Assembly (NCBI GenBank): GCA_002839705.1
Contig: PGYO01000001.1
Location: forward strand, 434,001-498,000
Direction: 5' to 3'
DNA from: Methanobacteriales archaeon HGW-Methanobacteriales-1
Lineage (GTDB): Archaea; Methanobacteriota; Methanobacteria; Methanobacteriales; Methanobacteriaceae
DNA length: 64,000 nucleotides
The stretch's first letter is position 1. Every line of letters starts with the position of its first letter. The translations under genes and the position numbers were made by a program. Below are positions 1,047 to 17,433 of the stretch, in pieces. Below the pieces are notes generated by a model, which saw only the letters and a program-made list of their open reading frames with translations, did not search any database and was not told the origin of the DNA.

Positions 1047-1059
1047 GGTTGCCGCCTTT
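1047..1059 (+). repeat. GGTTGCCGCCTT element, copy 1
   Basis: Exact copy of the GC-rich 12-mer GGTTGCCGCCTT followed by T. It lies in the leader of the 336-980 gene. On the transcribed (minus) strand it reads AAGGCGGCAACC. Other copies are at 5743, 8711 and 9131, all in the same orientation. Confidence 0.6.
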
Positions 1060-1070
1060 ATATTTAAATT

Positions 1071-1358: not shown

Positions 1359-1371
1359 ATTTAGATAACAT

Positions 1372-2105: not shown

Positions 2106-2118
2106 AAAATGTCCCCTT

Positions 2119-2289: not shown

Positions 2290-2843
2290 TAGATCACCCC
2301 TAATTCTTTGAGCATAGCTTTAAGGAATAATTCCACTTTCAACCCATCGACTGTGAAAACTAGTAACCAGTCCCTAATATTTTTACATTTGAAATCAACG
2401 GCTATAACATTTGAATTAGGATATTTTTTCTCAATATATTCCTGGAAGTAATCATTAATTTCTTCTGCTGCCAGGCTACAATTTTCTGTTATATAAAAAG
2501 TCATGAATAGGGTGGTTTTAGGATCTTCTGACTTTTCAAAACTTATTAAATAAACCGTTGAATCTTCTTTTAAATGTGGATAAAACTTTTTTAAAACATT
2601 TAATGCATCTTCAGATGATTCAGTATCAGTATCATGCATTAAAACAACGTCTGGAATATGACCTAATACTCTAATCATTGAATTAGAGCATATGGCATTA
2701 ACTTCCATTTGAGGTGTTTTAATCCTGTATTCTTTCCCTATTTCATATCCCTTTAATCTAATAGTTGAAAATTCATTATTAGCTAGCTTAGAATAATGTT
2801 TGTTGAATTTTACAATAGGAAGGCCCTTACAATCATCTCTCAT
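2289..2843 (-). CDS. Hypothetical protein with ASCH-like opening
   Basis: This 184-residue protein starts at the ATG at 2843, preceded by GAGG at a good distance; a longer frame to 2909 overlaps the upstream gene and is unlikely. The first 60 residues (FNKHYSKL, then FSTIRLKGYEIGKEYRI) resemble the N terminus of ASCH-like RNA-binding domains. The remainder, with DVVLMHDTD and a C-terminal helical part, is not recognised. The ASCH link is a weak pattern match. Confidence 0.6.
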   Translation of the reverse strand: MRDDCKGLPIVKFNKHYSKLANNEFSTIRLKGYEIGKEYRIKTPQMEVNAICSNSMIRVLGHIPDVVLMHDTDTESSEDALNVLKKFYPHLKEDSTVYLISFEKSEDPKTTLFMTFYITENCSLAAEEINDYFQEYIEKKYPNSNVIAVDFKCKNIRDWLLVFTVDGLKVELFLKAMLKELGVI

Positions 2844-2847
2844 GTTA

Positions 2848-3324
2848 TCACAGCCTCGGAGATTGTGGAGTATAGTAACAGTCATCTTCTGCACTCCAAT
2901 AAGCACCATATTCTATTAAATCGTAGGAGATTTTTCCAGTTTCATCATCCTCATATTTTTCAAATATAGGGTCACAATTAGGATTATGGCATTGATAGGA
3001 TGGACTGTAATAATCTGCTCTTAAAATAGTAACTGTGGGGATTAATTTCCCCAGATAAGTTACTGATCCACAATTAGGACATGGCCGAGTATCAATTTTA
3101 TTAGATACATTTGTACCTACAAAAAGGTGCATATCTCCACAGGTAAGATTTCCATCATCATCTATTACTTCCAAACGGCCATTCTGAGCCAGTTTATTAT
3201 AACAAGCATTGCATAGATCTACTGTTTTCCCCGTTTTTATCTGCTCTACTTCATTAAAATTCTTTGGAGATAATTTTGCATCACATTCAAAGCATTTAAT
3301 ATCTAAATCACTTAATTTAATCAT
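2848..3324 (-). CDS. Multi-zinc-finger protein
   Basis: This 158-residue protein carries two cysteine pairs near the N terminus (CFEC at 11-14 and CNAC at 38-41) and further pairs in CPNCG and CHNPNC in the second half, so it probably binds two zinc ions. The C-terminal part is acidic and rich in tyrosine. Its ATG overlaps the stop of the upstream 59-residue gene as ATGA. The function is unknown; nucleic acid or protein contact is likely from the zinc ribbons. Confidence 0.65.
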   Translation of the reverse strand: MIKLSDLDIKCFECDAKLSPKNFNEVEQIKTGKTVDLCNACYNKLAQNGRLEVIDDDGNLTCGDMHLFVGTNVSNKIDTRPCPNCGSVTYLGKLIPTVTILRADYYSPSYQCHNPNCDPIFEKYEDDETGKISYDLIEYGAYWSAEDDCYYTPQSPRL

Positions 3325-3500
3325 CCTATCACCCGATCTCTGATATTATGAACATATAATTTCATTTGAATCAAAGTCCATGAGGTAATATAATATTTGA
3401 ACCAGAGTCCAATCCCATAAGTAATATTTTCTTTATCCATGATGTCAGATGCACATTCCAGATGATATTCTAGTAATTCCAGATTTCTTCTACGGCTCAT
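3321..3500 (-). CDS. Small hypothetical protein, 59 aa
   Basis: The protein begins MSRRRNLELLEYHLEC and ends VIG. GAGGGG lies five to ten bases before the ATG at 3500, and the stop overlaps the next start (ATGA). It has a helical, aromatic-rich middle and no recognised motif. It is a real gene by ribosome site and coupling. Confidence 0.6.
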   Translation of the reverse strand: MSRRRNLELLEYHLECASDIMDKENITYGIGLWFKYYITSWTLIQMKLYVHNIRDRVIG

Positions 3501-3512
3501 GATTTCCCCTCT

Positions 3513-3692
3513 TTAGAATGCATAATATCCTTTATCATGAATAAGACAAACCACATTTTTCTTATACTTGCAAATGACATCTTTAAACAAGTCTTTTAAT
3601 TCTGATTCTGGCATGTTTGTTTCAATTGTCCCACAGGTTTCAGATCCATCTAAGAGTAAAAATCTTTTCACTTCAACAAAATCATTAATCAT
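3513..3692 (-). CDS. Small hypothetical protein, 59 aa
   Basis: The ATG at 3692 overlaps the stop of the upstream gene as ATGA, giving a product starting MINDFVEVKRFLL. A longer reading to 3722 would lie inside the upstream gene. One internal cysteine pair is far apart and not diagnostic. Not recognised. Confidence 0.55.
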   Translation of the reverse strand: MINDFVEVKRFLLLDGSETCGTIETNMPESELKDLFKDVICKYKKNVVCLIHDKGYYAF

Positions 3693-4123
3693 GATTTCAC
3701 TTCCACGATATCGGTTTTGCAAACCTTTTGAACTACCTCTTCGCAGCCAGTAACTACTTCTTTGAATAATTTAACCTGTTTAACAATGATTGGTTTTCCA
3801 CAGAAAGGGCAGAAATCAATATCTCTATACCTGAAATCTACAGATTCATGATCAAATTCTTCTGGAAATGCTTGTAAAATATTTAATTTACATGAATCTT
3901 CCTCAGTTTCATGATCATAATGACTATGGAAAATTATGAATGGCATTCCCATCTGATCTGGATCAGTTCCTAATTCTTTTTCCATAGGTTCACAGCAATA
4001 TTGAATATCATCTTTTAATAGATTCCAGCTCCAGGACTTATTTTTAAAAACCGTTTTACTATATGGCACAAAACAGGTATCTGCTGGTGCCGGGTTATCA
4101 TCTACCATTTTAAATTCAGGCAT
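3689..4123 (-). CDS. Hypothetical protein with CPFCG zinc knuckle
   Basis: This 144-residue product starts at the ATG at 4123, eight bases after GGGGGG; a TTG further upstream is less likely. It contains CC at about 43-44, a His/Asp-rich stretch (FHSHYDHETEED) and a C-terminal CPFCGKPI knuckle, typical of small phage and plasmid proteins. Its role is not known. It sits in the middle of the operon. Confidence 0.6.
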   Translation of the reverse strand: MPEFKMVDDNPAPADTCFVPYSKTVFKNKSWSWNLLKDDIQYCCEPMEKELGTDPDQMGMPFIIFHSHYDHETEEDSCKLNILQAFPEEFDHESVDFRYRDIDFCPFCGKPIIVKQVKLFKEVVTGCEEVVQKVCKTDIVEVKS

Positions 4124-4124
4124 A

Positions 4125-4460
4125 TTATTTCCCCCCAAATTTCGTATTCAAATTATCCAGTGCATCATGGGGTATCATGGGATTGTAATAGATCATATCA
4201 TAGTCTTTTGCTGGTATTCGTGGTATTTGGAGTTCTGAATAAATATTGATTAATGTAGTATCGGCAAGGATTACTTTATCCTGGATATATGCTTCATAAG
4301 GGATTGTTTGATGGTTTAATCGCCTCATGATGCTTTGCATTATATTATTTGTTTCATTACCATCCTTGGAGATTATTAAAACATGTTCCTTTTTATTCAC
4401 AATTTTTAGAATGGTTTTTGTCATTCCATGAATGCCAGCTACTGCTTCTAATTTACTCAT
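4125..4460 (-). CDS. Hypothetical protein, 111 aa
   Basis: The ATG at 4460 overlaps the methylase-like stop as ATGA. Residues about 15-75 alternate strands and helices (HVLIISKDGNETNNI, then KVILADTTLINIY), suggesting a small alpha/beta protein without a P-loop. No family recognised. Confidence 0.55.
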   Translation of the reverse strand: MSKLEAVAGIHGMTKTILKIVNKKEHVLIISKDGNETNNIMQSIMRRLNHQTIPYEAYIQDKVILADTTLINIYSELQIPRIPAKDYDMIYYNPMIPHDALDNLNTKFGGK

Positions 4461-5185
4461 TTTCCCACCACTGCAGCTGAAAAATCCATTAAAGTAACTG
4501 GTTTAGTTTCCTCTTTAATAATCCCTGTTGAGTTTTTCAGTTGTTTTAATTCTTTAGAATTGAATTTCCTAATATGTGGAATGCCACTATTAACATGGAG
4601 TACTTCATTAACTTTCCAAGCATCAAAATATTCTAATGTTAATGTGTTACCCCAAATCACATCTGCTTGTAGGCCATGTACTAAGAAATTACAAATAGTC
4701 ATTTTAGCACAGGTCATGTCGATGTCCTGGGCAACATAATAGTTTCCTAAGTTTTTCACGTGGAAACTCATTAGGCATCGCCCACTTCCACAGCTGGGAT
4801 CATTGATCAATAATCCTTTATTCTTCGTGCCTGTATTCATGGCTGTCATGAGATCACAGATAGTTGCTGGTGTGAAGAATTGTCCTGCTCCTTGTCTTCC
4901 TGATTTGGAACTAATCTCTGCTTCATAGTAGATACCAAAGAAATCAAACCAATCAGTATCAGTGATGCATTTCTGGTCCATGACTTTGATGAACTCCAGA
5001 TACATTAACCAGAAGACTTGCATCTCTGCTTCATTATAGGATTTTTCCCAGGTCACAGTTTTATCAATAGAAAAACTAGCAATAGCATAATCCAGGAAAT
5101 CATCAAACACTAAGGCTGCACCATATCGTGGTGTAAGTCTTTGCATTAGATTATGAAATTCTTTAAATTCATTGGGAGCATCCAT
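4457..5185 (-). CDS. N6-adenine methylase-like protein lacking NPPY
   Basis: This 242-residue protein resembles the N6_Mtase domain of type I modification subunits as found in phages and plasmids. The stretch GQFFTPATICDLM (motif X) is followed by NDPSCGSGRCLMSFH (AdoMet motif I) and a QDID motif II. The position where the catalytic NPP(Y/F) motif is expected, after WGNTLTLEYFDAW, has no such motif and the chain ends soon after. It may therefore bind AdoMet without methylating DNA. The ATG at 5185 follows GGAGGG at seven bases; longer readings to 5281 are displaced by the upstream HTH gene. Confidence 0.7.
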   Translation of the reverse strand: MDAPNEFKEFHNLMQRLTPRYGAALVFDDFLDYAIASFSIDKTVTWEKSYNEAEMQVFWLMYLEFIKVMDQKCITDTDWFDFFGIYYEAEISSKSGRQGAGQFFTPATICDLMTAMNTGTKNKGLLINDPSCGSGRCLMSFHVKNLGNYYVAQDIDMTCAKMTICNFLVHGLQADVIWGNTLTLEYFDAWKVNEVLHVNSGIPHIRKFNSKELKQLKNSTGIIKEETKPVTLMDFSAAVVGK

Positions 5186-5348
5186 TTTGCTCCCTCCTTT
5201 CATTGTATTCCTTAATTCTATTGTAGCAAGTATTTCGTGATGCTCCAGTTTCATTAGAAAATGTCTTATAACTGGTCCCATCTCTTTCTTTTCTTTTGGC
5301 CATGGATGCGACTTGATCTTCTGATAAAATAACGTGTCTTTTACTCAT
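5169..5348 (-). CDS. Small HTH protein, 59 aa
   Basis: The sequence SNETGASRNTCYNRIKEY near residues 31-48 fits a helix-turn-helix recognition unit. The ATG at 5348 overlaps the upstream stop (ATGA), and the 3' end overlaps the methylase-like start by 17 bases. It is probably a local DNA-binding protein. Confidence 0.6.
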   Translation of the reverse strand: MSKRHVILSEDQVASMAKRKERDGTSYKTFSNETGASRNTCYNRIKEYNERREQNGCSQ

Positions 5349-5641
5349 AAGATCACGCTACCTGCTACAGTTACAACCCGGATTTGGCCATTCTCTGGTC
5401 GGTTATTTTCCCAACGTTCTACTCTCATGAGCTTTTTATATGCATTCCGAGTGTTGAGGTCTATACGGTACATTCCTCGTGAACCTGTTTTTCTCCAGAG
5501 TTTCAGGATTTGAATATCTTCTGGTCGTAAACGTTCACTTCTGCGAATACATTCAATATCATGATCCAATTGATCCAGCAGCTGAATGAATTGAGGACCT
5601 TGAATATTAGCATTAAAATTAATTTCAACAAGATTAATCAT
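5345..5641 (-). CDS. Hypothetical protein, 98 aa
   Basis: The middle of the protein (ERLRPEDIQILKLWRKTGSRGMYRIDLNTRNAYKKLMRVERW) is strongly basic and helical, suggesting nucleic-acid contact. The ATG at 5641 overlaps the stop of the 40-residue gene as ATGA. Not recognised. Confidence 0.55.
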   Translation of the reverse strand: MINLVEINFNANIQGPQFIQLLDQLDHDIECIRRSERLRPEDIQILKLWRKTGSRGMYRIDLNTRNAYKKLMRVERWENNRPENGQIRVVTVAGSVIL

Positions 5642-5760
5642 TTGCTCAGCTCCATATCTTTAGCCCAAGCTGTGAGATTATCTAATGCTTCAATTCCTTC
5701 TTTTCGTATTTTCTCAACTTCAGATTCCTTTTTAGTCTTTTTGGTTGCCGCCTTTGACAT
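5638..5760 (-). CDS. Microprotein, 40 aa
   Basis: The product starts MSKAATKKTKKESEVEKIR and is lysine-rich and helical. AGGTGA precedes the ATG at 5760 at a normal distance, and the stop overlaps the next ATG. Codons 2-6 contain the second GGTTGCCGCCTT element in reverse, so coding and element overlap. Confidence 0.55.
   Translation of the reverse strand: MSKAATKKTKKESEVEKIRKEGIEALDNLTAWAKDMELSK
5743..5757 (+). repeat. GGTTGCCGCCTT element, copy 2
   Basis: Exact 12-mer extended to GGTTGCCGCCTTTGA. It lies inside the first codons of the 40-residue gene. The bases beyond it (TTTTCACCTG) are shared with copy 3, so these two copies are related over about 30 bases. Confidence 0.6.
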
Positions 5761-5764
5761 GTTT

Positions 5765-6043
5765 TCACCTGTATTTGATGTGTTTTAAAAAAATAAAATA
5801 AAATATTAAATAAAAGATGGTTGCCCAGATGTGTTTGCAGATAAACGTCCCATACTCCTTTTTCCATCGGTTATGGTGGTCATCACAATCACACCTGTAG
5901 ATTTCATCAAGAACACTAACCATATAGTCATTAGTTCCCTGGACTTTGAAGATTAATAGATCATCACTTTTAAAGTCAAGAGATACTTTTTTCTTAATGA
6001 ATAACTCCCATCCTTTAATAAATCTATTAAATATCCGATTCAC
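5765..6043 (-). CDS. SWIM-type zinc microprotein
   Basis: This 92-residue protein contains CDC followed by 17 residues and CKH, that is CxC-Xn-CxH, the signature of the SWIM zinc finger, at about residues 51-73. SWIM domains bind DNA or proteins in helicases and transposases; here it stands nearly alone. The C-terminal 20 residues are hydrophobic (IWATIFYLIFYFIFL). The start is GTG at 6043 with GAGG about 12 bases upstream. Confidence 0.65.
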   Translation of the reverse strand: MNRIFNRFIKGWELFIKKKVSLDFKSDDLLIFKVQGTNDYMVSVLDEIYRCDCDDHHNRWKKEYGTFICKHIWATIFYLIFYFIFLKHIKYR

Positions 6044-6113
6044 CTGTTACTTCCTCATTTTTCCATTCAAAGACTAATTTGGCTTGATAAGGGTTTAGGT
6101 TTCTAAATGACAT
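6027..6113 (-). CDS. Possible 28-aa microprotein
   Basis: A short frame from the ATG at 6113, three bases after the previous stop, with GGATGG upstream, gives a product starting MSFRNLNPYQAKLVFEW. It overlaps the SWIM start by 17 bases. It may instead be a leader peptide that couples translation. Only the ribosome site and the packing support it. Confidence 0.3.
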   Translation of the reverse strand: MSFRNLNPYQAKLVFEWKNEEVTGESDI

Positions 6114-6115
6114 TT

Positions 6116-6721
6116 TTATCCATCCAATTTGCTTATTATTTTATCATAATCTGCTTGGGTCATCCTATCCATCCCAAATAGTTCTTCTACTTTAGCTTTG
6201 AAATTCTCTAAAGTCATGTCAATACCATCAGAGCGTATTAATCCAGCAATATAATCCATGTCTTTATCTTTGAATCTACTAACATCGAATTCTACTATAT
6301 TAGCCTGGCCTTCATCAGTATCAAATTTTTTAAGTCCTATTTTGTAGGTGTGGTATTTTCCTTTCCCTTTTTTTACTTTAACTTTCCCAGTGTATTCTAA
6401 TTTGATTGCATCCCCGGGTTTGAGATTTTTTAGCCTGGATTTGAGGAATTTATTTTCAGTCACACTGTAAATCAAGTAAGGATTTTCTTTATCTGCTTTT
6501 TCTGATTCATCTTTAACTAGGATAAGTAAACCATAGAATGGATCTCCATCAGAATCCATGAATTCTCTTTTTTCTACAAAAATTCCTTTAAGAACTTCAT
6601 TCATGTCTGGTTTCCAGAATTCATCAATCACATAACTTGTTTGTGGAACCTCTAAATCTCCTTCATTCATTTTTAAGAAGTTCTCTAATCTTTCTTCAAA
6701 TCCAGTTAATTCCGCTTCCAT
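6116..6721 (-). CDS. Putative OB-fold, SSB-like protein
   Basis: The 201-residue product from the ATG at 6721 has a beta-rich centre (LKGIFVEKREF, then YGLLILVKDE, then LKPGDAIKLEYTGKVKVKKGKGKYHTYKIGLKK) that resembles OB-fold single-strand-binding proteins of phages. A C-terminal helical tail follows. The inference rests on pattern and on its neighbours, a YhaM-like nuclease and nucleic-acid-binding proteins. An in-frame GTG at 6730 overlaps the upstream gene. Confidence 0.5.
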   Translation of the reverse strand: MEAELTGFEERLENFLKMNEGDLEVPQTSYVIDEFWKPDMNEVLKGIFVEKREFMDSDGDPFYGLLILVKDESEKADKENPYLIYSVTENKFLKSRLKNLKPGDAIKLEYTGKVKVKKGKGKYHTYKIGLKKFDTDEGQANIVEFDVSRFKDKDMDYIAGLIRSDGIDMTLENFKAKVEELFGMDRMTQADYDKIISKLDG

Positions 6722-6726
6722 CTTAA

Positions 6727-6945
6727 TCACCCAGTCAGTTGCCCTAATTCATCTAAAACTTTCTTTTGAGCTTCAAGCACTGCTCGAACCCTATTTTTAC
6801 CAACAGATTTACTTTTTGGAATTTTGGCATCAATCAAAATAATTAATGTTTCCATATCTAAACCTGCATCGAGCATCGTTTGCATTCCATTTCTTATTGC
6901 TTCCATATCTTCTGCTAATTTCATTGCTACAGTCTTTTCTTCCAT
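6727..6945 (-). CDS. Hypothetical helical protein, 72 aa
   Basis: This all-helical acidic protein reads AEDMEAIRNGMQTMLDAGLDMETLIILIDAKIP, with no recognised motif. It is separated from the upstream HD gene by 64 bases and abuts the OB-fold gene. It could be an accessory protein to the SSB-like product; this is inference from location only. Confidence 0.55.
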   Translation of the reverse strand: MEEKTVAMKLAEDMEAIRNGMQTMLDAGLDMETLIILIDAKIPKSKSVGKNRVRAVLEAQKKVLDELGQLTG

Positions 6946-7009
6946 TTTTACACCTTTTTATTATTAAATTTCAATTTTAAGATGATCTTAAAATAAAATA
7001 AAAAATTAA

Positions 7010-7951
7010 TTATTGTTCCTGAAGTTTTCCCTTGGCTCTGGAGTCCAATAGGTCTGCATAATGCAATACAATAGCTTCAGGAGTATTGGGATTTACAACA
7101 GATCCCCAGCCATTAGTTACATCTCCATGATGTGAAAGGATTAAGTGCATTAGAGCATCTTTGTGTTCCTGTGGGAATGGTTCTCCATTCATAGCATGGT
7201 ATCGTAAAAAAAGATCTTCTAGGAGTTTACTTGATAAATAGAGGTGGCCGAATGTTTCTCCTTCAGGTGTCATCGTGACCATGGTCTTATCAAGAGTATA
7301 AGTCTTGATTTTACCCATGTCATGGAGTAAAGCACCAGTAGAAAGCAAATCTTTATTCAGGTCTTTGTAACAGTGATTCATAGTATTGCAGATTTTCATG
7401 ACATTTACACTGTGTTCTAAGTTACCAGAATTGTAATTGTGATGATGTCTCATTGCAGCTGGTGATGTAGTGAAATTTTCCCAGTATTCAGATTCCATGA
7501 AACAGCAAACTAAGTTTTTAAAGACTTCATCCTTCATGAAACTGACCTGGTCCTTAACGTATTTGATGTTTAAGTTTCTATTGGTCTGTGCTTCAGGCTG
7601 GTAATCCTCAATATTAAAGTTTTTAGTCTTCTGGATTTTCATTACAACCATATTGAATTTACCAGAATTTTCTGGGAATTCTTCAATTTTTCCACTGATT
7701 TTATGGACAATTCCAAGCTCTATTTTTCCAAATAGTTCCTGAATTTCTAGGTTTGCACCTTCTTTGGTATCATTGAAGGATCCAAATTTCCGAGCAACCA
7801 TAGTCCCAGTCTTATCTCCAAGGGTCATTTCAATATATTTCTTACCGTTTTTGGAGACTCTTATTTCCTTATCCATGATGACAAAGCAGTTATGTACACT
7901 AATTTGTTTTCTGAGGTCTTTGATGAAGATCTTTTTATCATCTTCCATCAT
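7010..7951 (-). CDS. YhaM-like OB-HD 3'-5' exoribonuclease
   Basis: This 313-residue protein has an N-terminal OB-like domain (about residues 10-115, with KNGKKYIEMTLGDKTG) and a C-terminal HD domain. The HD residues are visible in HHHNYNSGNLEHSV, LLHDMGK, LSHHGD and LHYADLLDSRAKG. This is the layout and length of YhaM/CBF1 exoribonucleases, metal-dependent enzymes that degrade RNA or single-stranded DNA from the 3' end. It starts at ATG 7951, which overlaps the preceding stop (TAATG). An element-encoded nuclease next to an SSB-like gene suggests a replication or RNA-turnover module. Confidence 0.85.
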   Translation of the reverse strand: MMEDDKKIFIKDLRKQISVHNCFVIMDKEIRVSKNGKKYIEMTLGDKTGTMVARKFGSFNDTKEGANLEIQELFGKIELGIVHKISGKIEEFPENSGKFNMVVMKIQKTKNFNIEDYQPEAQTNRNLNIKYVKDQVSFMKDEVFKNLVCCFMESEYWENFTTSPAAMRHHHNYNSGNLEHSVNVMKICNTMNHCYKDLNKDLLSTGALLHDMGKIKTYTLDKTMVTMTPEGETFGHLYLSSKLLEDLFLRYHAMNGEPFPQEHKDALMHLILSHHGDVTNGWGSVVNPNTPEAIVLHYADLLDSRAKGKLQEQ

Positions 7952-8136
7952 TAGGCCCCCTGGGAAATCAGGTAGTAGTGTGGTCCTTCACTAGTTGCTA
8001 GTGCTGCAGCTCCTATCAAAATTAGTGATAGGATTATAGCTAGGACAAGGACTTCACGGCTCAAATAAACTGGGATTGCTGGTTTTTTATGTAAAGTCCT
8101 TGATGTTGAAAAATAGTATGAAATGAGTTTTAGCAT
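7951..8136 (-). CDS. Single-pass membrane protein, 61 aa
   Basis: One clear membrane segment (VLVLAIILSLILIGAAALA, about residues 29-47) follows a basic N terminus. The gene overlaps the histone-fold gene by seven bases and shares one base with the nuclease gene, so the three are translated together. Function unknown. Confidence 0.6.
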   Translation of the reverse strand: MLKLISYYFSTSRTLHKKPAIPVYLSREVLVLAIILSLILIGAAALATSEGPHYYLISQGA

Positions 8137-8681
8137 GATACCACACCCCTAACTGTTAGGATGTTTTCATCAATTTTGAGTATTGGTGTGTATCCTACTA
8201 TCCCATAGCTTCTTTGGATTGTGCTAATGAGTTCTTTGAGGCTGATTTGTGCGAATGTTTTGACTGTGGAGGGTCTGGTATTATGGTCAAGGTATGCTGT
8301 GAATGCTAATGCTCCAGATAAATCTGCCTGTGGATCATAATAGATACTAGCAGTCATCTTTTGTGTTCCACCAAATCTAATGACTTTTAATTCCATTAAT
8401 TTGATGTCACCATCGTTGTCCTGTTTTGCTGGATTCAGTAGTTCAATGGCGTGATCCATATCTTGTGGTCGGATGGTTCTGCGGCCATTTTCATTAGCGA
8501 TTCTACTGGCCAGGTCACTGATTTCGTGTGCTTCCTGGTTGATTTTATTTTCAAAAAAAGTTTGCAGGATTTCAGCTGAGTATCTACTAATTTTAGTAGC
8601 ATGGCCTGGTCCTACATTTACGTGTTCTTTTAGCGTTTTCACAACGTGTGAAAATGCTATTTTTACATTTTCGGGTTTCAT
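8130..8681 (-). CDS. Histone-fold protein with novel C-terminal domain
   Basis: This 183-residue protein carries a histone fold at about residues 30-84. The end of the fold, NGRRTIRPQDMDHAIELL, matches the pattern of archaeal histones (GRKTIKAEDIELAVRRF in HMfB), and the long central helix precedes it. Archaeal histones are about 67 residues; this one has a further 100 residues of mixed beta/alpha sequence that I do not recognise. It is the first gene of the minus-strand operon and so may both package element DNA and control the operon. The start at 8681 is the only good ATG, in a context with AGGT upstream. Confidence 0.7.
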   Translation of the reverse strand: MKPENVKIAFSHVVKTLKEHVNVGPGHATKISRYSAEILQTFFENKINQEAHEISDLASRIANENGRRTIRPQDMDHAIELLNPAKQDNDGDIKLMELKVIRFGGTQKMTASIYYDPQADLSGALAFTAYLDHNTRPSTVKTFAQISLKELISTIQRSYGIVGYTPILKIDENILTVRGVVSC

Positions 8682-8710
8682 GTTTTTACCTATTTTAAGT
8701 TATTTCAAAG

Positions 8711-8725
8711 GTTGCCGTCTTTGAG
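8711..8725 (+). repeat. GGTTGCCGCCTT element, copy 3
   Basis: Reads GGTTGCCGTCTTTGA, one mismatch to the 12-mer. It lies in the predicted 5' leader of the histone-fold operon, 30 bases before the ATG. The adjoining TTTTTCACCTGTTG matches the surroundings of copy 2. Confidence 0.55.
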
Positions 8726-8763
8726 TCAGGTTTTTCACCTGTTGTTTTATTCTATGAACTTTG

Positions 8764-8775
8764 GTATATATAAAG
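8764..8775 (-). promoter_or_regulatory. TATA box of histone-fold operon
   Basis: On the minus strand this reads CTTTATATATAC. A start site about 25 bases downstream would give a leader of roughly 60 bases before the ATG at 8681, containing element copy 3. Confidence 0.5.
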
Positions 8776-8826
8776 ATTGCTATATTTATATAAATGTATA
8801 TTGTGACCAATAATAATATATAACAA

Positions 8827-8834
8827 TATATAAA
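8827..8834 (+). promoter_or_regulatory. TATA box of RHH gene
   Basis: TATATAAA on the plus strand. A start site near 8855 is followed by a perfect AAGGAGGTGAT ribosome site at 8865-8875 and the putative start at 8879. The two divergent promoters lie within 70 bases, so one regulator could control both. Confidence 0.5.
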
Positions 8835-8878
8835 TACATAATAATAACAAAAAAGAGATATAACAAGGAGGTGATAAT

Positions 8879-9064
8879 ATTTCTACAATCACCACAACGG
8901 AAGATATTATGACCGAAACAATCGTACAACTTCATATAAGAGTAGACAAAACCATAAGAGATAACGTAAAAATAATGGCCATCAGAAGAGGAATGACACA
9001 AAATGACCTCTTACTCGAATACGTAGAAACTGGTCTCAAAAAAGACGAAAAGTTTCTGAAATAA
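8879..9064 (+). CDS. Ribbon-helix-helix protein, probable AUU start
   Basis: The 61-residue frame contains a ribbon-helix-helix pattern: strand TIVQLHIRVD, then helices KTIRDNVKIMAIRRG and TQNDLLLEYVETGL. The frame is open from an ATT at 8879 that sits five bases after GGAGGTGAT. The first in-frame ATG (8909) is about 34 bases past that site and would leave a 51-residue protein. I therefore favour an AUU start, with ATG as the alternative. Facing the histone-fold operon, it is the likely repressor of the element. Confidence 0.65.
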   Translation: MSTITTTEDIMTETIVQLHIRVDKTIRDNVKIMAIRRGMTQNDLLLEYVETGLKKDEKFLK

Positions 9065-9130
9065 ACACATTAATTCTATTTTTGCCTCTAATCAAAAGGA
9101 TAGTTCACAATATCAAAACTATCCATATTC

Positions 9131-9145
9131 GGTTGCCGCCTTCGA
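9131..9145 (+). repeat. GGTTGCCGCCTT element, copy 4
   Basis: Reads GGTTGCCGCCTTCGA, an exact 12-mer, 66 bases downstream of the ribbon-helix-helix gene and outside any gene. The surrounding stretch 9065-9454 otherwise holds repeat A and the promoter of the restriction operon. Confidence 0.6.
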
Positions 9146-9222
9146 TTATAAACTCTTTTTTACAAATAACTACAATACTTTCCTGTAGTTAACAAATATC
9201 TATTATCCTCAGTATTATTTAA

Positions 9223-9300
9223 GAGCCTGACCCAAGGGGGGAGGCGTAAACTGGGAAGTTATATTTAAGGTTAATTGTTTTCAAGTGTAAAATTATTTTT
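9223..9300. repeat. Dispersed repeat A (pair with 63525)
   Basis: About 75 bases that align with 63525-63596: GAGCCTGACC..GGGGGGAGGC..TAAACTGGGAAGTT then TTTTCAAGTGTAAAATTA. The match is imperfect but runs throughout, with one five-base gap. Both copies lie beside accessory genes. It may be a small mobile repeat, a remnant of an insertion sequence or a structured RNA. Confidence 0.55.
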
Positions 9301-9416
9301 GTTAAACTCTAGTTTCAAAGTGTTCTTTAAGTTTTCATCTTTTTAGGGACTATTTTTTAGAATTATCTTTTAGGAAATCCATTTGTCCCGAAAAACTTTT
9401 ATATTAATTATAGTAA

Positions 9417-9454
9417 ATATACTGTATATGTAAAGTATATATGGAGTATATATA
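9417..9454. promoter_or_regulatory. Operator region of restriction operon
   Basis: A perfect palindrome ATATACTGTATAT (9417-9429) is followed by two direct repeats AGTATATAT at 9434 and 9445, the last ending at the ATG. GGAG (9443-9446) is the ribosome site. The TATA-like TTTTATATTAATT lies at about 9398-9410. This layout suits autoregulation by the ribbon-helix-helix protein encoded first. Confidence 0.55.
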
Positions 9455-9682
9455 ATGCATAATGAAGCTGATAAAAAAAATTCTTCTCACTCAACAGTGA
9501 CTTTACCTCGGGAAATGGCAGAAGAATATGAAAAGATTATAAAAGCAAATGAATCTTTAGGATTTGGATCATTTAGAGAATTCGTTAAAGACGCAGTAAG
9601 AACCAGTATTGCGAAATATCAAGAAATAGAACTTAAAAATCATGAACTAAGAAATAAAAGAGATAATGGGGCCAATAAATGA
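9455..9682 (+). CDS. RHH regulator of restriction operon
   Basis: This 75-residue protein carries a ribbon-helix-helix pattern: strand STVTLPREM, helix AEEYEKIIKANESLG, then SFREFVKDAVRTSIAKYQEIEL. Its stop overlaps the next ATG (ATGA), so it is made together with the nuclease-methylase. It takes the place of the controller (C) protein that times expression in many type II systems, and the repeats in front of its gene are likely binding sites. That role is inferred. Confidence 0.7.
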   Translation: MHNEADKKNSSHSTVTLPREMAEEYEKIIKANESLGFGSFREFVKDAVRTSIAKYQEIELKNHELRNKRDNGANK

Positions 9683-11589
9683 CAAATGAAAAAGTCACTG
9701 ATATTTTCATAGCTACTCTTTTAAAAGAATCTGGAATTAAGTATATTCCTAATGATGGAATCACTAAAGAAGTAAAAGAAGCTTTAAAAACTGCATCTAA
9801 AAATCAAACAGGAAAACAAGGTTTTCCAGAATTCACAGCACAATCTGAAGAATTTATACTAGTTATTGAAGATAAAGCAGATCTTAATAAACACGCTTCA
9901 TTTGAAAATAAAGAAAAAACTATTTTATCAAATGATCCAAAATCAGTCAAAAATTTTGCCATGAATGGAGCAGTACATTATGCTCAAAAAATAGTGGATC
10001 AAACTAATTTTAAAAAAGTATTTGCCTTTGGTTGTAGTGGAGATGAAAAACACCATAAAATAAGACCAATCTTTGTTGATGCGAAGGAATATAAAATTTT
10101 ACCAGAAGTGGAAAACTTTGAAAATTTCACCCAAGAAAACATTATGAATTATTATAATGAACAAGTCCTTGGTAAAATGCCTGAAGAAGAAAAAGAGATA
10201 ATGACTCTTTGTGAAAAATCAAAAGACCTTCATGAATTTTTAAGAAACTATGGACAATTAGGTGAAACAGAAAAACCACTAGTAGTCTCAGCTATTTTAT
10301 TAGCATTAAATGATAGTGAAAATGAAAATTTATTAGATAATCTTAAAGGGCGAGAAACAAAAACCGATGGGGAATGGATATTTGAGGCACTTGGAATAAG
10401 TTTAAAAAATTCAGAAGTGCCTTTTGAAAAAACTGAAGTTATCTTAAATCAATTTACAATAATCAAAGATAGAAGATACTTAAATGAAATTGATAACAGA
10501 TTGGGAAAAACTCCTTTAAAATACTTCTCTGAATTCATTAAAGACAACATATCTGATAAAATTAATTCTTATAACTCACCAGCAGATGTTTTAGGCAAAT
10601 TTTATGGTGAATTTATGAAATATAGTGGGGGTGATGGCCAAACATTAGGTATTGTATTAACTCCACAACATATAACTGAATTATTCTGCGATTTACTTGA
10701 ATTAAACCAAGATGATGTGATTTTCGATCCATGCTGTGGTACCGGAGGGTTTTTACTAGCTGGAATGCACAAAATGATTGAAAGTGCAAATAATGATGAA
10801 AAAAAGATCAATAATATAAAAAAGAATCAAATTTATGGTATTGAAGTTCGTGAAGAGATGTTTTCCATCGCAACTACTAATATGATATTACGTGGTGATG
10901 GTAAAAGTAATCTGAGAAGAGAAGATTTCTTAAAAATTGATCCTAAAGAATTACAAAAAGATAAATATACCGTAGGATTAATGAATCCACCTTACAGTCA
11001 AAAAAATAATAAAGAAACTGCTCACCTATCTGAGCTGCATTTTATTGAACATTTACTTGATTCATTAAATAATAATGCTCGTTGTGCGGTAATTGTTCCA
11101 CAATCTACAATGATTGGACAATATAATGAAGATAAACAAGTCAAAAAGAATATTCTGAAAAAGCACACATTAGAAGGAGTTATTACTCTCAACTCCGAAA
11201 CTTTTTACAAAGTTGGTGTTAATCCATGTATTGCTATATTCACAGCCCATAATCCCCACCAAAAAGAAAAAAGATGTAAATTTGTTAATTTTAAGGATGA
11301 TGGGTTTATTACCCGCAAACATATAGGGCTTGTTAAAACAGAACGTGTAAAAGAAAAAAAAGAGCATTTGTTGAAATGTTGGCAGGATAAAAAAGATGCT
11401 GAAACAAAATTCATGGTTAAAACACAAATAGAAGCTGACGATGAATGGTTACACTCTTTTTATTACTTCAATGATGAATTACCAAATCATGAAGACTTTG
11501 AAAAATCAATAGCAGAATATCTAACATTTGAATTTGACATGGTAATGAAAGGTAAAGAATATTTATTTTTAAATGAGGAGTCTTTATGA
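9679..11589 (+). CDS. BcgI-like fused nuclease-methyltransferase
   Basis: This 636-residue protein fuses a PD-(D/E)XK-like nuclease segment (PEF, then FILVIEDKADL, about residues 48-70) to an N6-adenine methyltransferase with LTPQHITELF (motif X), FDPCCGTGGFL (AdoMet motif, about 349) and NPPY (catalytic, about 435). Length and layout fit the A subunit of type IIB/IIG systems such as BcgI, which cut on both sides of their site when joined to a specificity subunit. The gene overlaps both neighbours by four bases, so the three form an operon. All key motifs are present and it appears active. Confidence 0.85.
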   Translation: MTNEKVTDIFIATLLKESGIKYIPNDGITKEVKEALKTASKNQTGKQGFPEFTAQSEEFILVIEDKADLNKHASFENKEKTILSNDPKSVKNFAMNGAVHYAQKIVDQTNFKKVFAFGCSGDEKHHKIRPIFVDAKEYKILPEVENFENFTQENIMNYYNEQVLGKMPEEEKEIMTLCEKSKDLHEFLRNYGQLGETEKPLVVSAILLALNDSENENLLDNLKGRETKTDGEWIFEALGISLKNSEVPFEKTEVILNQFTIIKDRRYLNEIDNRLGKTPLKYFSEFIKDNISDKINSYNSPADVLGKFYGEFMKYSGGDGQTLGIVLTPQHITELFCDLLELNQDDVIFDPCCGTGGFLLAGMHKMIESANNDEKKINNIKKNQIYGIEVREEMFSIATTNMILRGDGKSNLRREDFLKIDPKELQKDKYTVGLMNPPYSQKNNKETAHLSELHFIEHLLDSLNNNARCAVIVPQSTMIGQYNEDKQVKKNILKKHTLEGVITLNSETFYKVGVNPCIAIFTAHNPHQKEKRCKFVNFKDDGFITRKHIGLVKTERVKEKKEHLLKCWQDKKDAETKFMVKTQIEADDEWLHSFYYFNDELPNHEDFEKSIAEYLTFEFDMVMKGKEYLFLNEESL

Positions 11590-12692
11590 TTAATAAAGAT
11601 TTTTCGGATTTAAAATGGAAAGAATTTTCTTTCGATGAAATCTTTGATATTAAGAATGGTTTTTATAATAAAAAACCTGAAATGTCTAATTCAGAAAGAA
11701 TTCCATTTTTGGGCGCAACATCAAATAATAACGGAATAACCGGTTTTTCTTCTTTAGAAAGAATTGAAAAATCTTCTAAAACTGGGCATGGTAAAAATCA
11801 CCCATTAGAAAAAAAGATTTTTGATGGTAACTGTATAGCTGTGACAAATAATGGTTCAGTAGGATATGCATATTATCAAAAAAATAAATTCACATGTAGT
11901 CATGATATTAATCCACTTTATTTAAAAAATCATACTCTTAACAGATATATCGCATTTTTTTTAATTGCACTCATTGAAAAACAGAAAATTTGTTTTGAGT
12001 ATAGTCGAAAATGGCGACCTGAAAGGATGAAAAAATCTAAAATTATTATACCTGTGACAAAAAAAGGTATTCCAGATTGGAATTTCATGGAAGAATACAC
12101 AAGATCAAAAGAGAGAATTTTACTTAAAAAATATGTATCTCATTTAATGAAAGAGCTTAATAGAATTAATACTGAATTTGAAATTACAGATATATCATCC
12201 ATAAAGTGGGGTGAATTTTTTATTTCAGATATTAGTGAAATCGAGTCTGGAAGAGATATCTATGGGCCTGAAAGAATCAAAGGCAACATTCCATATATTT
12301 CTGCCAAATCTAAAGATAATGGTATTGGTCATTTTGTAGGTAATGAAAATAATACTTTGGAAAATAATTGCATATCAGTTAACCGAAATGGATCTGTTGG
12401 TTATGCTTTTTATCATCCATATAAAGCACTATATTCCAATGATTGTCGGAAAATACGTCTAAACAAAAATAAGCATGTTTCACTTTTTATTGCTAATCAG
12501 ATCACTTCTCAAAGAGGTAAATATGGTTATGGGTATAAAATGGGCACTGGAAGACTAAAAAGGCAAAAAATCATGCTTCCAGTAGATGATAACGATAATC
12601 CTGATTGGGATTTCATGGAATATTATATTAAACAAATAGAATATAAAAAAATTAATAAGTATTTGGATTATATTGAAGACAGAATTAATTAA
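11586..12692 (+). CDS. BcgI-like specificity subunit
   Basis: This 368-residue protein is built from two related halves. LKWKEFSFDEIFDIKNG near residue 9 is repeated as IKWGEFFISDISEIESG near 208, and PDWNFMEEY is repeated as PDWDFMEYY at the ends. Each half holds a target-recognition domain and a helix. This is the architecture of the S subunit of type I and BcgI-like systems, with two half-sites read in one DNA sequence. It overlaps the A subunit gene by four bases. Confidence 0.85.
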   Translation: MINKDFSDLKWKEFSFDEIFDIKNGFYNKKPEMSNSERIPFLGATSNNNGITGFSSLERIEKSSKTGHGKNHPLEKKIFDGNCIAVTNNGSVGYAYYQKNKFTCSHDINPLYLKNHTLNRYIAFFLIALIEKQKICFEYSRKWRPERMKKSKIIIPVTKKGIPDWNFMEEYTRSKERILLKKYVSHLMKELNRINTEFEITDISSIKWGEFFISDISEIESGRDIYGPERIKGNIPYISAKSKDNGIGHFVGNENNTLENNCISVNRNGSVGYAFYHPYKALYSNDCRKIRLNKNKHVSLFIANQITSQRGKYGYGYKMGTGRLKRQKIMLPVDDNDNPDWDFMEYYIKQIEYKKINKYLDYIEDRIN

Positions 12693-12760
12693 TTATTTTA
12701 GTCTAAATTTTCTTTTTCTGATAAAAATTAATAAATAAAACTCAGAATAAATATAAAACC

Positions 12761-12824
12761 TGATTACCTTCCAGAAACCTTGTCTCCTTTTGGTTTCTAT
12801 AACCAAATATTTGGGAGGTAATCA
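12761..12824. other. Nested stem-loop after restriction operon
   Basis: TGATTACCTTCC (12761-12772) pairs with GGGAGGTAATCA (12813-12824), 12 pairs with one G-U. Inside, AGAAACC (12773) pairs with GGTTTCT (12792), with a 12-base loop TTGTCTCCTTTT. It lies 69 bases after the specificity gene. It could be a 3' UTR structure, a terminator-like hairpin or a small RNA; no T-run follows closely. Confidence 0.55.
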
Positions 12825-12881
12825 ACTATTATCATAATTAAATCATATTAAAATAAAAATAATTAATTATAAAATAATTTA

Positions 12882-13064
12882 ATGAAATTACCAGGACATC
12901 TACCTAAAAAAATTAGTATTTCATTATTTATTTTAGTTGTAATCCTACTCTTTTTACTCATCTCACATAGAATAGACTTACCCTACAGTTTAAACCTGAT
13001 AGCACTACCCATAATAATAATTATACTACTAATTTTAATGGTTTTAATCGCAAAAGAAGAATAA
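12882..13064 (+). CDS. Two-pass membrane microprotein, 60 aa
   Basis: Two hydrophobic helices (SISLFILVVILLFLLIS and IALPIIIIILLILMVLIA) are joined by a short polar turn HRIDLPYSLN. It has no ribosome site and no recognised family. A degraded copy of this gene lies at 14055-14209, which shows that it is a duplicated unit of this region. Confidence 0.5.
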   Translation: MKLPGHLPKKISISLFILVVILLFLLISHRIDLPYSLNLIALPIIIIILLILMVLIAKEE

Positions 13065-13386
13065 ATATATACTTTTTTTGGTTCGTAGTTAAATAATTAT
13101 ATCTTAAATATTACTTATTATCATAATAGGATAGGGATTAAAAAAAAATATTTTTAGAGTTGAGAATATGTTTCTCTGAAGCTCCTCTAATTTTAAATTT
13201 TAAATTTGATCCCTTATAACATAAATCCTTAAACCACGAGCAGATTTGTGTGAATAAGTGATTTTAGGGAAGAAAAAATCATGGGTACCTCCTGAATCTT
13301 TTAACCTTCCCTAAACCCACAATAGTTATTTTAAATGTTCTTTTAATAGGTTTAAAAAAAAATATTTGAACTAATGAAAATATCAT
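13065..13386. other. Intergenic with long stem-loop
   Basis: TTTAGGGAAG (13263-13272) pairs perfectly with CTTCCCTAAA (13306-13315) around a 33-base loop that contains GGGTACCTCCTGAATC. CCTCC in the loop is complementary to ribosome-binding sequences. A TATA-like TTATAACATAAA lies at about 13215-13226. Nothing else is seen in this stretch, apart from an 18-base piece at 13331 resembling the end of the Orc1/Cdc6-like gene. Confidence 0.45.
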
Positions 13387-13968
13387 TTAACTAAAACTTA
13401 TTGATAATTCGTTTAAATTATTTATTGCATTTTCTATATTTTTAATTAAAGTTTTATCAATCGATTTAAGATTATCATAATTAATAGAGTTATTTAAATT
13501 AATTGTTACATAATTATCTCTCATTTTTAAATGATCATTTATGTATTCTAAGTTAGAAATTAATTTAATCAATTCTTTATAAGTATCACCTAAAATCTTC
13601 TTATCAATTAAAATTTTTATATTATCCCATAAATCTGTTTTAATCATTGGTAATGGATGTTTTATTGATTTTGAACCATTTTCAAAGTTTTCTATCTCAT
13701 CTTTCAAATCCTGAAGAATTTTGTTTAACCTATATTCATTATATTCTAATTCTGAAATGATTGATAATTCTAATTCTTTATTCTTTTTTTTAATTCTAAA
13801 GGATTCTAAAGATAGTGATATTACTGCAGTTAATGAAGAACCCATAAGAACCGCAATAGCATTAGAAATTCCTGATGTATTATTATTCAAAGCTAGAATA
13901 ATGAAAGTTATTAGTAACAAAATGAAGAAAGATGAGAAAAATATTATATATTTATTCAATGTATTCAT
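13387..13968 (-). CDS. Membrane-anchored coiled-coil protein
   Basis: This 193-residue protein has two N-terminal membrane helices (YIIFFSSFFILLLITFIILAL and ISNAIAVLMGSSLTAVISLSL), then a long charged helix (RIKKKNKELELSIISELEYNEYRLNKILQDLKDEIENF) and a helical C terminus. It has no catalytic motif. It stands alone between two recombination scars, so it is probably cargo, perhaps defence-related by its company. Function unknown. Confidence 0.55.
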   Translation of the reverse strand: MNTLNKYIIFFSSFFILLLITFIILALNNNTSGISNAIAVLMGSSLTAVISLSLESFRIKKKNKELELSIISELEYNEYRLNKILQDLKDEIENFENGSKSIKHPLPMIKTDLWDNIKILIDKKILGDTYKELIKLISNLEYINDHLKMRDNYVTINLNNSINYDNLKSIDKTLIKNIENAINNLNELSISFS

Positions 13969-14015
13969 AAATTATTATTATAATTTAATTATTAATATAT
14001 TTTTTAATTTATTGT

Positions 14016-14055
14016 AAATGTTCTTTTAGTATCTGATTAGATCCTAGTTTTTCTA
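14016..14055 (-). pseudogene. Fragment of Orc1/Cdc6-like gene 3' end
   Basis: This stretch matches the 3' end of the Orc1/Cdc6-like gene at 17440-17479 in 36 of about 40 bases, in the same orientation, and runs directly into the degenerate membrane-protein copy. It is a scar of recombination rather than a gene. Confidence 0.65.
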
Positions 14056-14209
14056 AAAAAATTAGTATAATTATTATTTTATAAGTAATCCTACTCTTTT
14101 TACCATCTCACACAGAATAGACTTACCCTACAGTTTAAACCTAATAGCACTACCCATAATAACATTTATGCTGCTATTTTTAATGGTTTTAATCGCAGAA
14201 GAAGAATAA
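14055..14209 (+). pseudogene. Degraded copy of 60-aa membrane protein
   Basis: About 150 bases align with 12908-13065 with few changes, including the shared stretches AGAATAGACTTACCCTACAG and TTTTAATGGTTTTAATCGCA. The first codons are missing, replaced by the Orc1/Cdc6-like fragment, and the frame is shifted near the start. It is a non-functional duplicate. Confidence 0.75.
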
Positions 14210-14228
14210 ATAATTCAAATATTTAATA

Positions 14229-15581
14229 TTATGGATTATAATTTAAATTATCCTCATTAATGACTTCTGAAGTATTAATCATAATATGCTCTGCTAACAT
14301 ACGTATTAATGGAATTTCTTGTACTAATTCTTCTTCATGATTAGTTAATGGGATGTAAATCCCTTTTTTTTCTTCGTTGAATAATAAATCTCCTTCTTTA
14401 CTATGAATTAGTGCATTGCGAACATTATGAACTCTTTCAGATAATGAATTAATCTCAATAGTTTCTTTATCTTCCCTAATTTTCTTTGCATGTGCAAATC
14501 TCACACCCTTAGATTTTAGATAATTATAGTAATTTCCATCATATTCGATTAAATCAGTTTTTAAGTCATTTAAATCGATTAGTTGTTCAATTACTAATTT
14601 TGTAGCATTTTTTTCGTTAAATTTCCACTCTCTAGAAGTTTTTATTACATTTTCTATAGATTTTTGATTTTTATACGAAAAACTTGGATGAGTTAAAATA
14701 TCCCTTACAATTTTTATTATATCCTCATTTGATACTTCATAATGAAAATTCTCGATAATCTGATAGAATGATAAATATTGCAAAACTGGATTCTGGGAAG
14801 AAATAGCCTGTTGATAATAATAAAATAATTTTTCATTATAAATTCTAAGTGGAGCAGAAATAGTTATAGATTCGAAAAACCTAGGGGGAGTATTCATTTT
14901 TTGTCGGAATTCCATAAGTGAAATATCTTTATCATAACCAAGTGAAAAAAGAAAAGAATTATTAAGAGTTTTAAAAGTAGATAAATCGATTTTTTGTTTT
15001 GATGAAATTTTTATAGTTATTATTCCTTTGAACATCTCTTTTAAAATTGACTTGAGAGTTAAGAAAATATCTCTTTCATTACCCGATTTCAATTTAAATT
15101 GTTTGTTGGTTAAAAGTGATGCTTCTGAATACGTATCTAGCTCCATATGAACAAATATAAACCTTGAATCACGTTTAAAAACTTGAGATTTGTGGGTTCT
15201 TGCTAAAAAAAAGGATGATACTTCATTATCTTTAAATAATTTGTAGAAACAAGATAAAATATATTCAATGCTGGGATATGAAATTTCATATTGGATATTA
15301 TTTTCTTTATCTTTTGCTGAAATGAAGTTATCAAAATCAAGAAAATCATTGGGTTTAATTAATAATTGCTCAAAGTAATTATTATTATAAATAAATGTAT
15401 CATTATATTCACATTTTTTTAAATAGTTTACTTCATCATTGATATCAAAATTTTTAATATGAACATTAACCTCAGGATCAACATCTAAATCAGAATTTCT
15501 AAATGTGAAATAATTTTTTTCTGTTTTTAAGTTTAATAGTTTGATAAAATTTTCTTCTAGGAATTTATCATCAATATCCAT
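14229..15581 (-). CDS. Large HEPN-type protein
   Basis: The first 350 residues of this 450-residue protein are not recognised and contain no P-loop. Near the C terminus the sequence ERVHNVRNALIHSKEGD (Arg388, His393) is the RNxxxH pattern of HEPN domains, RNases found in toxin and antiphage systems, and helices follow on both sides. It lies between the recombination scar and the ImmA-type pair, transcribed away from the latter. A defence role is likely from motif and place, but not proven. Confidence 0.6.
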   Translation of the reverse strand: MDIDDKFLEENFIKLLNLKTEKNYFTFRNSDLDVDPEVNVHIKNFDINDEVNYLKKCEYNDTFIYNNNYFEQLLIKPNDFLDFDNFISAKDKENNIQYEISYPSIEYILSCFYKLFKDNEVSSFFLARTHKSQVFKRDSRFIFVHMELDTYSEASLLTNKQFKLKSGNERDIFLTLKSILKEMFKGIITIKISSKQKIDLSTFKTLNNSFLFSLGYDKDISLMEFRQKMNTPPRFFESITISAPLRIYNEKLFYYYQQAISSQNPVLQYLSFYQIIENFHYEVSNEDIIKIVRDILTHPSFSYKNQKSIENVIKTSREWKFNEKNATKLVIEQLIDLNDLKTDLIEYDGNYYNYLKSKGVRFAHAKKIREDKETIEINSLSERVHNVRNALIHSKEGDLLFNEEKKGIYIPLTNHEEELVQEIPLIRMLAEHIMINTSEVINEDNLNYNP

Positions 15582-17432: not shown

Positions 17433-17433
17433 A

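What the first reader, a model, noticed from the sequence alone, without database searches (positions are those of the whole stretch)
8130..8681. Element-encoded histone-fold protein with an extra 100-residue domain
Residues about 30-84 match the archaeal histone pattern, ending in GRRTIRPQDMDHAIELL. The other 100 residues are unlike any histone tail I know. It leads the element operon and faces a ribbon-helix-helix gene, so it could package element DNA, silence it or recruit the nuclease encoded two genes later.
Basis: partly seen in the sequence, partly recalled or inferred. Interest (0 to 1): 0.75.

Follow-up and report, generated by a model that had tools for sequence, protein, structure and literature searches.

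The report
Viral histone with unknown extra domain
A virus integrated in the chromosome of a methane-producing archaeon carries its own unusual histone, fused to a domain of unknown kind, which makes it possible to test whether viruses of archaea manipulate chromatin.

Summary
The minus-strand ORF 8681->8130 (183 aa) has a whole histone domain (residues about 6-84) plus a ~100-residue C-terminal domain that matched nothing in the searches made. The histone part outscores 10,000 shuffles. It keeps the published signature (RRTI in loop 2, R67-D74 clamp, Lys at both DNA anchors), a long alpha3, an alpha2 four residues longer, an expanded loop 1, and a dimer-dimer interface changed at two of four positions. 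By published criteria it should bind DNA but polymerise poorly.

The 'element' is a 56.4-kb psiM2-like head-tailed provirus, delimited by empty sites in two congeneric genomes. The gene heads a tight leftward cluster, divergent from an Arc-like ORF. Its nearest relative found is a divergent host histone present in 4 of 151 genomes, suggesting virus-host gene exchange. The C-terminal fold is unresolved. No independent copy of the whole protein was found: the one IMG/VR match is identical DNA. Two other IMG/VR viral contigs carry canonical histones.

Best reading: a viral chromatin protein making discrete, non-spreading histone-DNA units. Nuclease recruitment has no support; silencing is undecided. 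New variant of a known kind.

The parts
8130..8681 (-). Provirus histone-fold protein, 183 aa (P0001)
8430..8666 (-). Histone domain, residues about 6-84; helices 10-21, 33-64, 72-82 in the AF2 model
8133..8429 (-). C-terminal domain, residues 85-183, no relative found; low-confidence order strand-strand-strand-helix-strand-strand
7951..8136 (-). 61-aa ORF overlapping the end of the histone gene by 7 bases, with a hydrophobic stretch (read by eye)
7010..7951 (-). HD-domain, YhaM-like exoribonuclease homologue
8909..9064 (+). 51-aa Arc-like ORF, divergent
8710..8724 (+). 15-bp repeat GGTTGCCGTCTTTGA, 28 bases between it and the start codon of the histone gene
19600..20790 (-). Provirus integrase, 27% identical to the psiM2 integrase
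20792..20801 (.). Attachment core TTAATAACAA at the right end; the left copy is at G000:C1:398400-398409, outside the window
1..20801 (.). Part of the 56,392-bp provirus (G000:C1:398400-454791) that lies in the window, with the right attachment core

Best explanation
A psiM2-like head-tailed provirus of a Methanobacteriaceae archaeon encodes a divergent histone fused to a ~100-residue extra domain. The protein most likely homodimerises through the histone fold and binds DNA with the usual loop surface, but does not stack into long hypernucleosomes, because the dimer-dimer face is altered and carries the extra domain. As first gene of the leftward cluster it would be made early and form discrete, non-spreading histone-DNA units on viral (or host) DNA, keeping viral promoters or the replication region out of host hypernucleosomes, with the C-terminal domain giving specificity or a partner. 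Shown here: provirus setting, histone homology, gene position, retained DNA-contact and changed interface residues by alignment. Inferred: homodimer, DNA binding, lack of polymerisation, early timing, target. Unknown: the job of the C-terminal domain.
For: Histone homology. Residues mapped on host histone L005, numbered as HMfB: R10->K15, R19->K30, R52/K53/T54->R67/R68/T69, V55->I70, D59->D74 kept or conservative; H49->E64 and L62->H77 changed, L46->I61 conservative. PMC6136690 (passages) names L46/H49/D59/L62 as the tetramer interface, R10/R19 as DNA anchors and R52-D59 as the fold salt bridge, and proposes bending or interference with multimerisation for histones that lack the interface. Alpha2 longer by four residues than in host histones, which I take to favour self-pairing. 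First of three end-to-end overlapping ORFs, divergent from an Arc-like ORF. Provirus limits.
Against: No biochemistry. The histone domain is neutral (pI 6.97, net charge 0) where host canonical histones have pI about 9.1, which weakens the DNA-binding inference; the divergent host histone is also acidic (pI 6.1). Both anchor arginines are lysines. The AF2 model is weak (mean pLDDT 55) and its alignment contained host histones. Only monomers were modelled. No independent homologue of the whole protein was found, so constraint cannot be measured. Early timing is assumed from position.
Confidence: 0.42

Rival explanations
1. A histone-fold regulator rather than a chromatin protein: a TAF- or NF-Y-like dimer whose C-terminal domain reads specific sites, such as the 15-bp repeats upstream of its own and other genes of the region, and represses or activates the leftward genes.
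For: Neutral histone domain; NF-Y chains rank high in the fold search (rank 1 is NF-YB/NF-YC); a 15-bp asymmetric repeat lies just upstream of the gene, with five exact copies in the genome, all in this region; position opposite an Arc-like ORF.
Against: Nothing links the repeat to this protein; the Arc-like ORF or another protein could read it. Fold scores do not separate NF-Y from histones.
Confidence: 0.25
2. A virion or packaging chromatin protein: it coats the viral genome for storage in the head, as histones of Marseilleviridae do.
For: Viral histones that package virion DNA are known (PMC11390915 introduction, passages); two other viral contigs carry canonical histones next to head or tail genes.
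Against: The gene is far from the structural module and heads a cluster with a nuclease-like gene; changed stacking interface; neutral charge.
Confidence: 0.12
3. One reading: the histone domain brings the HD exoribonuclease-like protein to nucleic acid.
For: Overlapping ORFs suggest coupled translation.
Against: The downstream protein resembles an exoribonuclease. Relatives of it occur in 18 phage records; I did not examine their neighbours, but no relative of P0001 was found in that collection.
Confidence: 0.06
4. A captured host histone gene under little constraint, on its way to decay.
For: No independent copy of the whole protein was found; strong divergence from canonical histones.
Against: Intact frame with signature residues kept, in an overlapping cluster.
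Confidence: 0.1

Closest known systems
Divergent 93-aa chromosomal histone of the host genus (L002 and orthologues)
   Same: 38% identical over residues 6-81; same loop-1 expansion region and basic positions K15, K30
   Different: No C-terminal domain; R52-T54 pair lost (K, N, I instead of R, K, T); alpha2 of ordinary length; encoded on the chromosome outside the provirus
Nucleosomal archaeal histones (HMfB type; host L003-L005)
   Same: Three-helix order, RKTV-type loop, R-D clamp, long alpha3
   Different: Interface positions 49 and 62 changed, alpha2 four residues longer, loop 1 expanded, neutral charge, extra domain
'Phage histones' of Schwab et al. 2024 (PMC11390915; sections 6, 9, 11 and passages read)
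   Same: Encoded by tailed viruses; [quoted passage not shown]
   Different: Those have a truncated alpha3, lack the RxTxxxD motif and have a helical tetramerising C-terminus; here alpha3 is about 11 residues in the model, the motif is present, and the C-terminal prediction is mostly strands at low confidence
Coiled-coil and Methanococcales histones (PMC11390915 section 9)
   Same: Archaeal histones with an added C-terminal element
   Different: Their C-terminal element is a long helix (coiled-coil type) or a tetramerisation domain; no such helix directly after alpha3 is predicted here
psiM2 and psiM100 (Leisingerviridae)
   Same: TerL 40% and 39% identical over 86% of the query, integrase 27% identical to psiM2's, endolysin at one end and integrase beside the attachment core at the other
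   Different: psiM2, psiM100, PhiF3 and vir323 show no PF00808 match; this provirus is larger

Membership tests
Archaeal nucleosomal histone | Three-helix histone fold | tested here: met
   Profile and shuffle test; AF2 helices 10-21, 33-64, 72-82 at moderate to low confidence; the 50 Foldseek rows shown are entries of histone-fold proteins, best E=0.016; VIA Z up to 7.5
Archaeal nucleosomal histone | RKTV loop-2 motif and R-D clamp seven residues apart (PMC13260811 section 10) | tested here: met
   RRTI at 67-70; R67 and D74
Archaeal nucleosomal histone | Anchor arginines R10 and R19 / RV motif in loop 1 | tested here: inconclusive
   Lysines K15 and K30-I31 at the aligned positions
Archaeal nucleosomal histone | Dimer-dimer interface L46, H49, D59, L62 (PMC6136690 passages) | tested here: not met
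   I61, E64, D74, H77: two of four changed in character
Archaeal nucleosomal histone | Small residue (G16) in loop 1 | tested here: inconclusive
   V21 in the alignment, but loop 1 has an insertion that makes the column uncertain
Archaeal nucleosomal histone | Binds DNA and forms hypernucleosomes | not testable with these tools
   Needs biochemistry
Phage histones (alpha3 family, Schwab 2024) | Alpha3 helix truncated to 3-4 residues | tested here: not met
   Alpha3 72-82 in the model, block pLDDT about 78
Phage histones (alpha3 family, Schwab 2024) | No RxTxxxD-type motif | tested here: not met
   R67-x-T69-xxxx-D74 present
Phage histones (alpha3 family, Schwab 2024) | Helical C-terminal tetramerisation domain | tested here: inconclusive
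   Mostly strands plus one helix predicted, at pLDDT below 50
psiM2-like head-tailed provirus | Terminase, head, tail, lysis and integrase genes with delimited insertion | tested here: met
   TerL, major head, tape measure, minor tail and endolysin PHROG matches; portal only at Pfam E=0.0068, under cut-off; integrase; empty sites
psiM2-like head-tailed provirus | Virus family demarcation (Leisingerviridae) | not tested
   No genome-wide taxonomic comparison was run

The most novel reading that the evidence does not exclude
An archaeal virus took a host histone variant, lost its ability to polymerise, lengthened its dimerisation helix so that it pairs only with itself, and fused it to a new domain, making an early viral factor that opposes host hypernucleosomes on viral DNA: an archaeal, histone-based counter-silencing system, and one instance of a wider habit of tailed viruses of methanogens to carry histone genes.
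Probability: 0.25. Interest if true: 0.85.

Novelty: new variant of a known kind. Interest (0 to 1): 0.6.

Why it matters
Archaeal chromatin is built of histone polymers, yet how viruses of such archaea cope with it is little studied (my judgement; the searches turned up no report of histone genes in tailed viruses of methanogens, in an open-licence library only). A viral histone that keeps DNA-contact positions but has an altered stacking face gives a direct handle: one purified protein can show whether viruses cap, displace or reprogram hypernucleosomes. Its nearest relative being a host histone of narrow distribution gives a concrete candidate case of histone exchange between virus and host.

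Tried and rejected
Relatives of the whole protein: phages (none of 50,697 records), plasmids (only a weak stretch in seven RepA genes, E=0.2, rejected), genome contigs (none confirmed of 70 stretches), 151 genomes of the phylum (full length only in its own genome; the short host histone also in two others), IMG/VR (only the identical contig). These IMG/VR and genome-contig scans start from short peptide patterns and reach close relatives only.

C-terminal domain: no relative in Pfam, PHROGs or PDB sequences nor among 3,032 stop-to-stop frames of the loci held then. Fold search with its low-confidence model listed GFP and NUDIX chains at E>=0.2, disregarded. The viral structure library gave no E<=0.001; the list mixes eukaryotic-virus histones with unrelated proteins. 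A weak PHROG match of residues 5-64 (phrog_30419, E=0.035, function unknown) was not followed.

Routes that led nowhere: the 204-aa neighbour as a way to syntenic loci (two partial weak matches besides itself); the HD gene in IMG/VR (same contig only); the portal protein in phages (no match); attachment repeats sought in the wrong range, then solved with the empty sites of G134 and G135; a sigma-70-type promoter scan, not apt for an archaeon.

Canonical histone L004 in phages: no match; L002 there: none. PF00808 in viral records: I listed 86 records but could search only 50, which I chose as nearest by TerL plus long contigs. 3 of 50 match, but these three (L010, L024, L025) were included because they were known to carry histones; the other 47, many of them fragments, had none. 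P0001 matched 1 of 50, the identical contig. So viral histones look rare in this sample.

Considered and rejected: counting the IMG/VR contig as a second observation, because it has no mismatch over the 14,932 bases compared.

Changes made on re-checking: the first, ill-formed version of this report said that the phage relatives of the HD gene were not seen next to a histone; I had not looked, and the statement is withdrawn. It also called the flanks of L024 and L025 head and tail genes on my reading of the ORFs alone; one search then tested ten of them.

Full report
What is there. Window 8681->8130 on the minus strand encodes a 183-residue protein. Residues 6-84 are a histone domain, residues 85-183 a separate stretch. 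Pfam gives Histone E=2.4e-5 and CBFD_NFYB_HMF E=3.3e-4, both a shade under gathering; in the genome scan the second is over the cut-off. As a control I built profiles that leave this protein out: four divergent host histones score it 30.8 bits, against 9.1 for the best of 10,000 shuffles; five canonical histones give 11.9 against 8.7. So similarity to the divergent host histone is clear and similarity to canonical histones alone is marginal. AlphaFold2 with an eight-sequence alignment (which included host histones, a bias) gives helices 10-21, 33-64 and 72-82; the best block of ten residues has mean pLDDT 90, the chain only 55. The 50 Foldseek rows shown and the 50 VIA rows shown are entries of histone-fold proteins, aligned to residues 1 to about 90 at modest scores (best E=0.016; best Z=7.5).

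Residue reading. Mapped onto host histone L005, whose numbering I take as that of HMfB from memory: R10->K15, R19->K30, R52/K53/T54->R67/R68/T69, V55->I70, D59->D74, L46->I61, H49->E64, L62->H77, G16->V21 (uncertain, loop insertion). PMC13260811 section 10 (read) gives the RKTV loop, the RV loop and the R-D clamp as the histone signature. PMC6136690 (passages) gives L46/H49/D59/L62 as the tetramer interface, R10/R19 as anchors and R52-D59 as the salt bridge, and suggests that histones with changed interfaces bend DNA or interfere with multimerisation. By these criteria the viral protein keeps the clamp and the DNA loop (Lys for Arg at the anchors) and has two of four interface positions changed. 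From the loop-1 Ser to the loop-2 Gly it has 34 residues where canonical host histones have 30, and loop 1 is expanded (my count). The domain is neutral (pI 6.97), unlike host canonical histones (pI 9.1-9.2), though the divergent host histone is also acidic (pI 6.1); this weakens the DNA-binding inference.

C-terminal domain. No relative in Pfam, PHROGs, PDB sequences or the loci held. Two AF2 runs, within the chain and alone from one sequence (mean pLDDT 47), give the same order, three strands, a helix, two strands, at a confidence too low to name a fold; Foldseek finds nothing convincing.

The element. The genome left of the window holds the structural genes of a head-tailed virus: terminase large subunit (40% to psiM2 over 86% of the query), major head protein, tape measure, minor tail protein and endolysin match known families; the portal match is weak. 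The integrase at 19600-20790 is 27% identical to psiM2's. Two genomes of the same genus, G134 and G135, lack the insertion: their DNA passes from the equivalent of C1:398415 to that of window 20792-20807, and a 10-bp core TTAATAACAA is shared by both junctions and both empty sites. The provirus is thus 56,392 bp, C1:398400-454791, with the histone gene well inside. IMG/VR holds the same virus as a 47,021-base contig, identical over the 14,932 bases compared, so probably the same assembly and not a second observation.

Neighbourhood. The histone gene, a 61-aa ORF and an HD exoribonuclease-like gene overlap end to end, which suggests one operon. Divergent from it is a 51-aa Arc-like ORF. By eye a TATA-like stretch lies at 8765-8774 on the minus strand. 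Between it and the start codon is a 15-bp asymmetric motif; the 2.57-Mb genome holds five places with at most one mismatch, all exact, on the same strand, within 9.3 kb of this region, while the reversed control pattern gives one. This resembles mycobacteriophage stoperators (PMC9283540, passages), but nothing ties the motif to this protein.

Origin. The closest relative found is a 93-aa chromosomal histone, L002, 38% identical over residues 6-81, present in 4 of 151 genomes: the window's own, two more of its genus and one of another genus. Two carriers are named Methanobacteriaceae MAGs. Matches are found in both directions (E=8.3e-6; 8.2e-7), and L002 scores higher against P0001 (45.8 bits) than against the one canonical histone compared, L004 (32.0 bits). 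The direction of transfer was not tested with a tree.

Other viral histones. A scan of IMG/VR with host canonical histones found two contigs, L024 (47.7 kb) and L025 (6.2 kb), each with a 69-70-aa canonical histone (69% and 68% identical to L004) on the strand opposite to its flanking genes; a second scan found the same two. Of ten neighbouring ORFs tested against PHROGs, the L025 set includes major head, head maturation protease, head morphogenesis, neck and minor tail matches (5 of 6 matched), while the L024 set gave one neck-protein match (E=2.1e-4) and one family of unknown function (2 of 4 matched). No canonical histone was found in 50,697 phage records.

Known kinds. Schwab et al. 2024 (PMC11390915; sections 6, 9, 11 and passages read) describe 17 prokaryotic histone categories, among them 'phage histones' with truncated alpha3, no RxTxxxD motif and a helical C-terminus. 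The present protein fails the first two of these, so it is not filed there, although it too is a two-part histone of a tailed virus. Borg elements carry histones (PMC12660748, passages) and some large phages an H1-like protein (PMC12619734, passages).

Verdict. A real, intact, virus-encoded divergent histone with an unclassified extra domain. The mechanism offered, discrete non-polymerising histone units from the head of a viral gene cluster, follows from residue changes and position; no step of it has been tested in the laboratory.

Noticed in passing
window 5743-5757, 8710-8724, 9131-9145; L013 13851-13865 and 13947-13961; weaker copy at window 1047-1061: A 15-bp asymmetric motif GGTTGCCGYCTTYGA, five exact copies, all on the + strand and all within 9.3 kb of the provirus; no other place in the genome with at most one mismatch. 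Stoperator-like or 5'-leader element.
   Followed up: partly
L024 5001-5210 (+); L025 4962-5174 (+): Canonical archaeal histones in two IMG/VR viral contigs, on the strand opposite to flanking genes, like cargo genes.
   Followed up: partly
L002 1474-1755 (-) (G000:C3): A divergent 93-aa chromosomal histone with an expanded loop 1 that has lost the R-x-T loop motif; found in 4 of 151 genomes.
   Followed up: partly
window 1611-2105 (-): Provirus gene for a JAB-type isopeptidase (Pfam Prok-JAB E=5.6e-11), with under-cut-off matches to CBASS Cap3 and an anti-phage cap2_3 model.
   Followed up: no
window 15690-17432 (+): IrrE/ImmA-type peptidase gene followed by a DUF4411/PIN-type gene, possibly a toxin-antitoxin pair.
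   Followed up: no
window 9455-12692 (+): A 75-aa ORF, an N6-adenine methylase and a type I specificity-subunit gene; no restriction subunit was noticed in the ORFs listed nearby.
   Followed up: no
window 17434-18291 (-): Cdc6-like AAA+ ATPase gene inside the provirus.
   Followed up: no
window 8631-8659: A 13-bp imperfect inverted repeat (TAGCGTTTTCACA/TGTGAAAATGCTA) inside the first codons of the histone gene.
   Followed up: no
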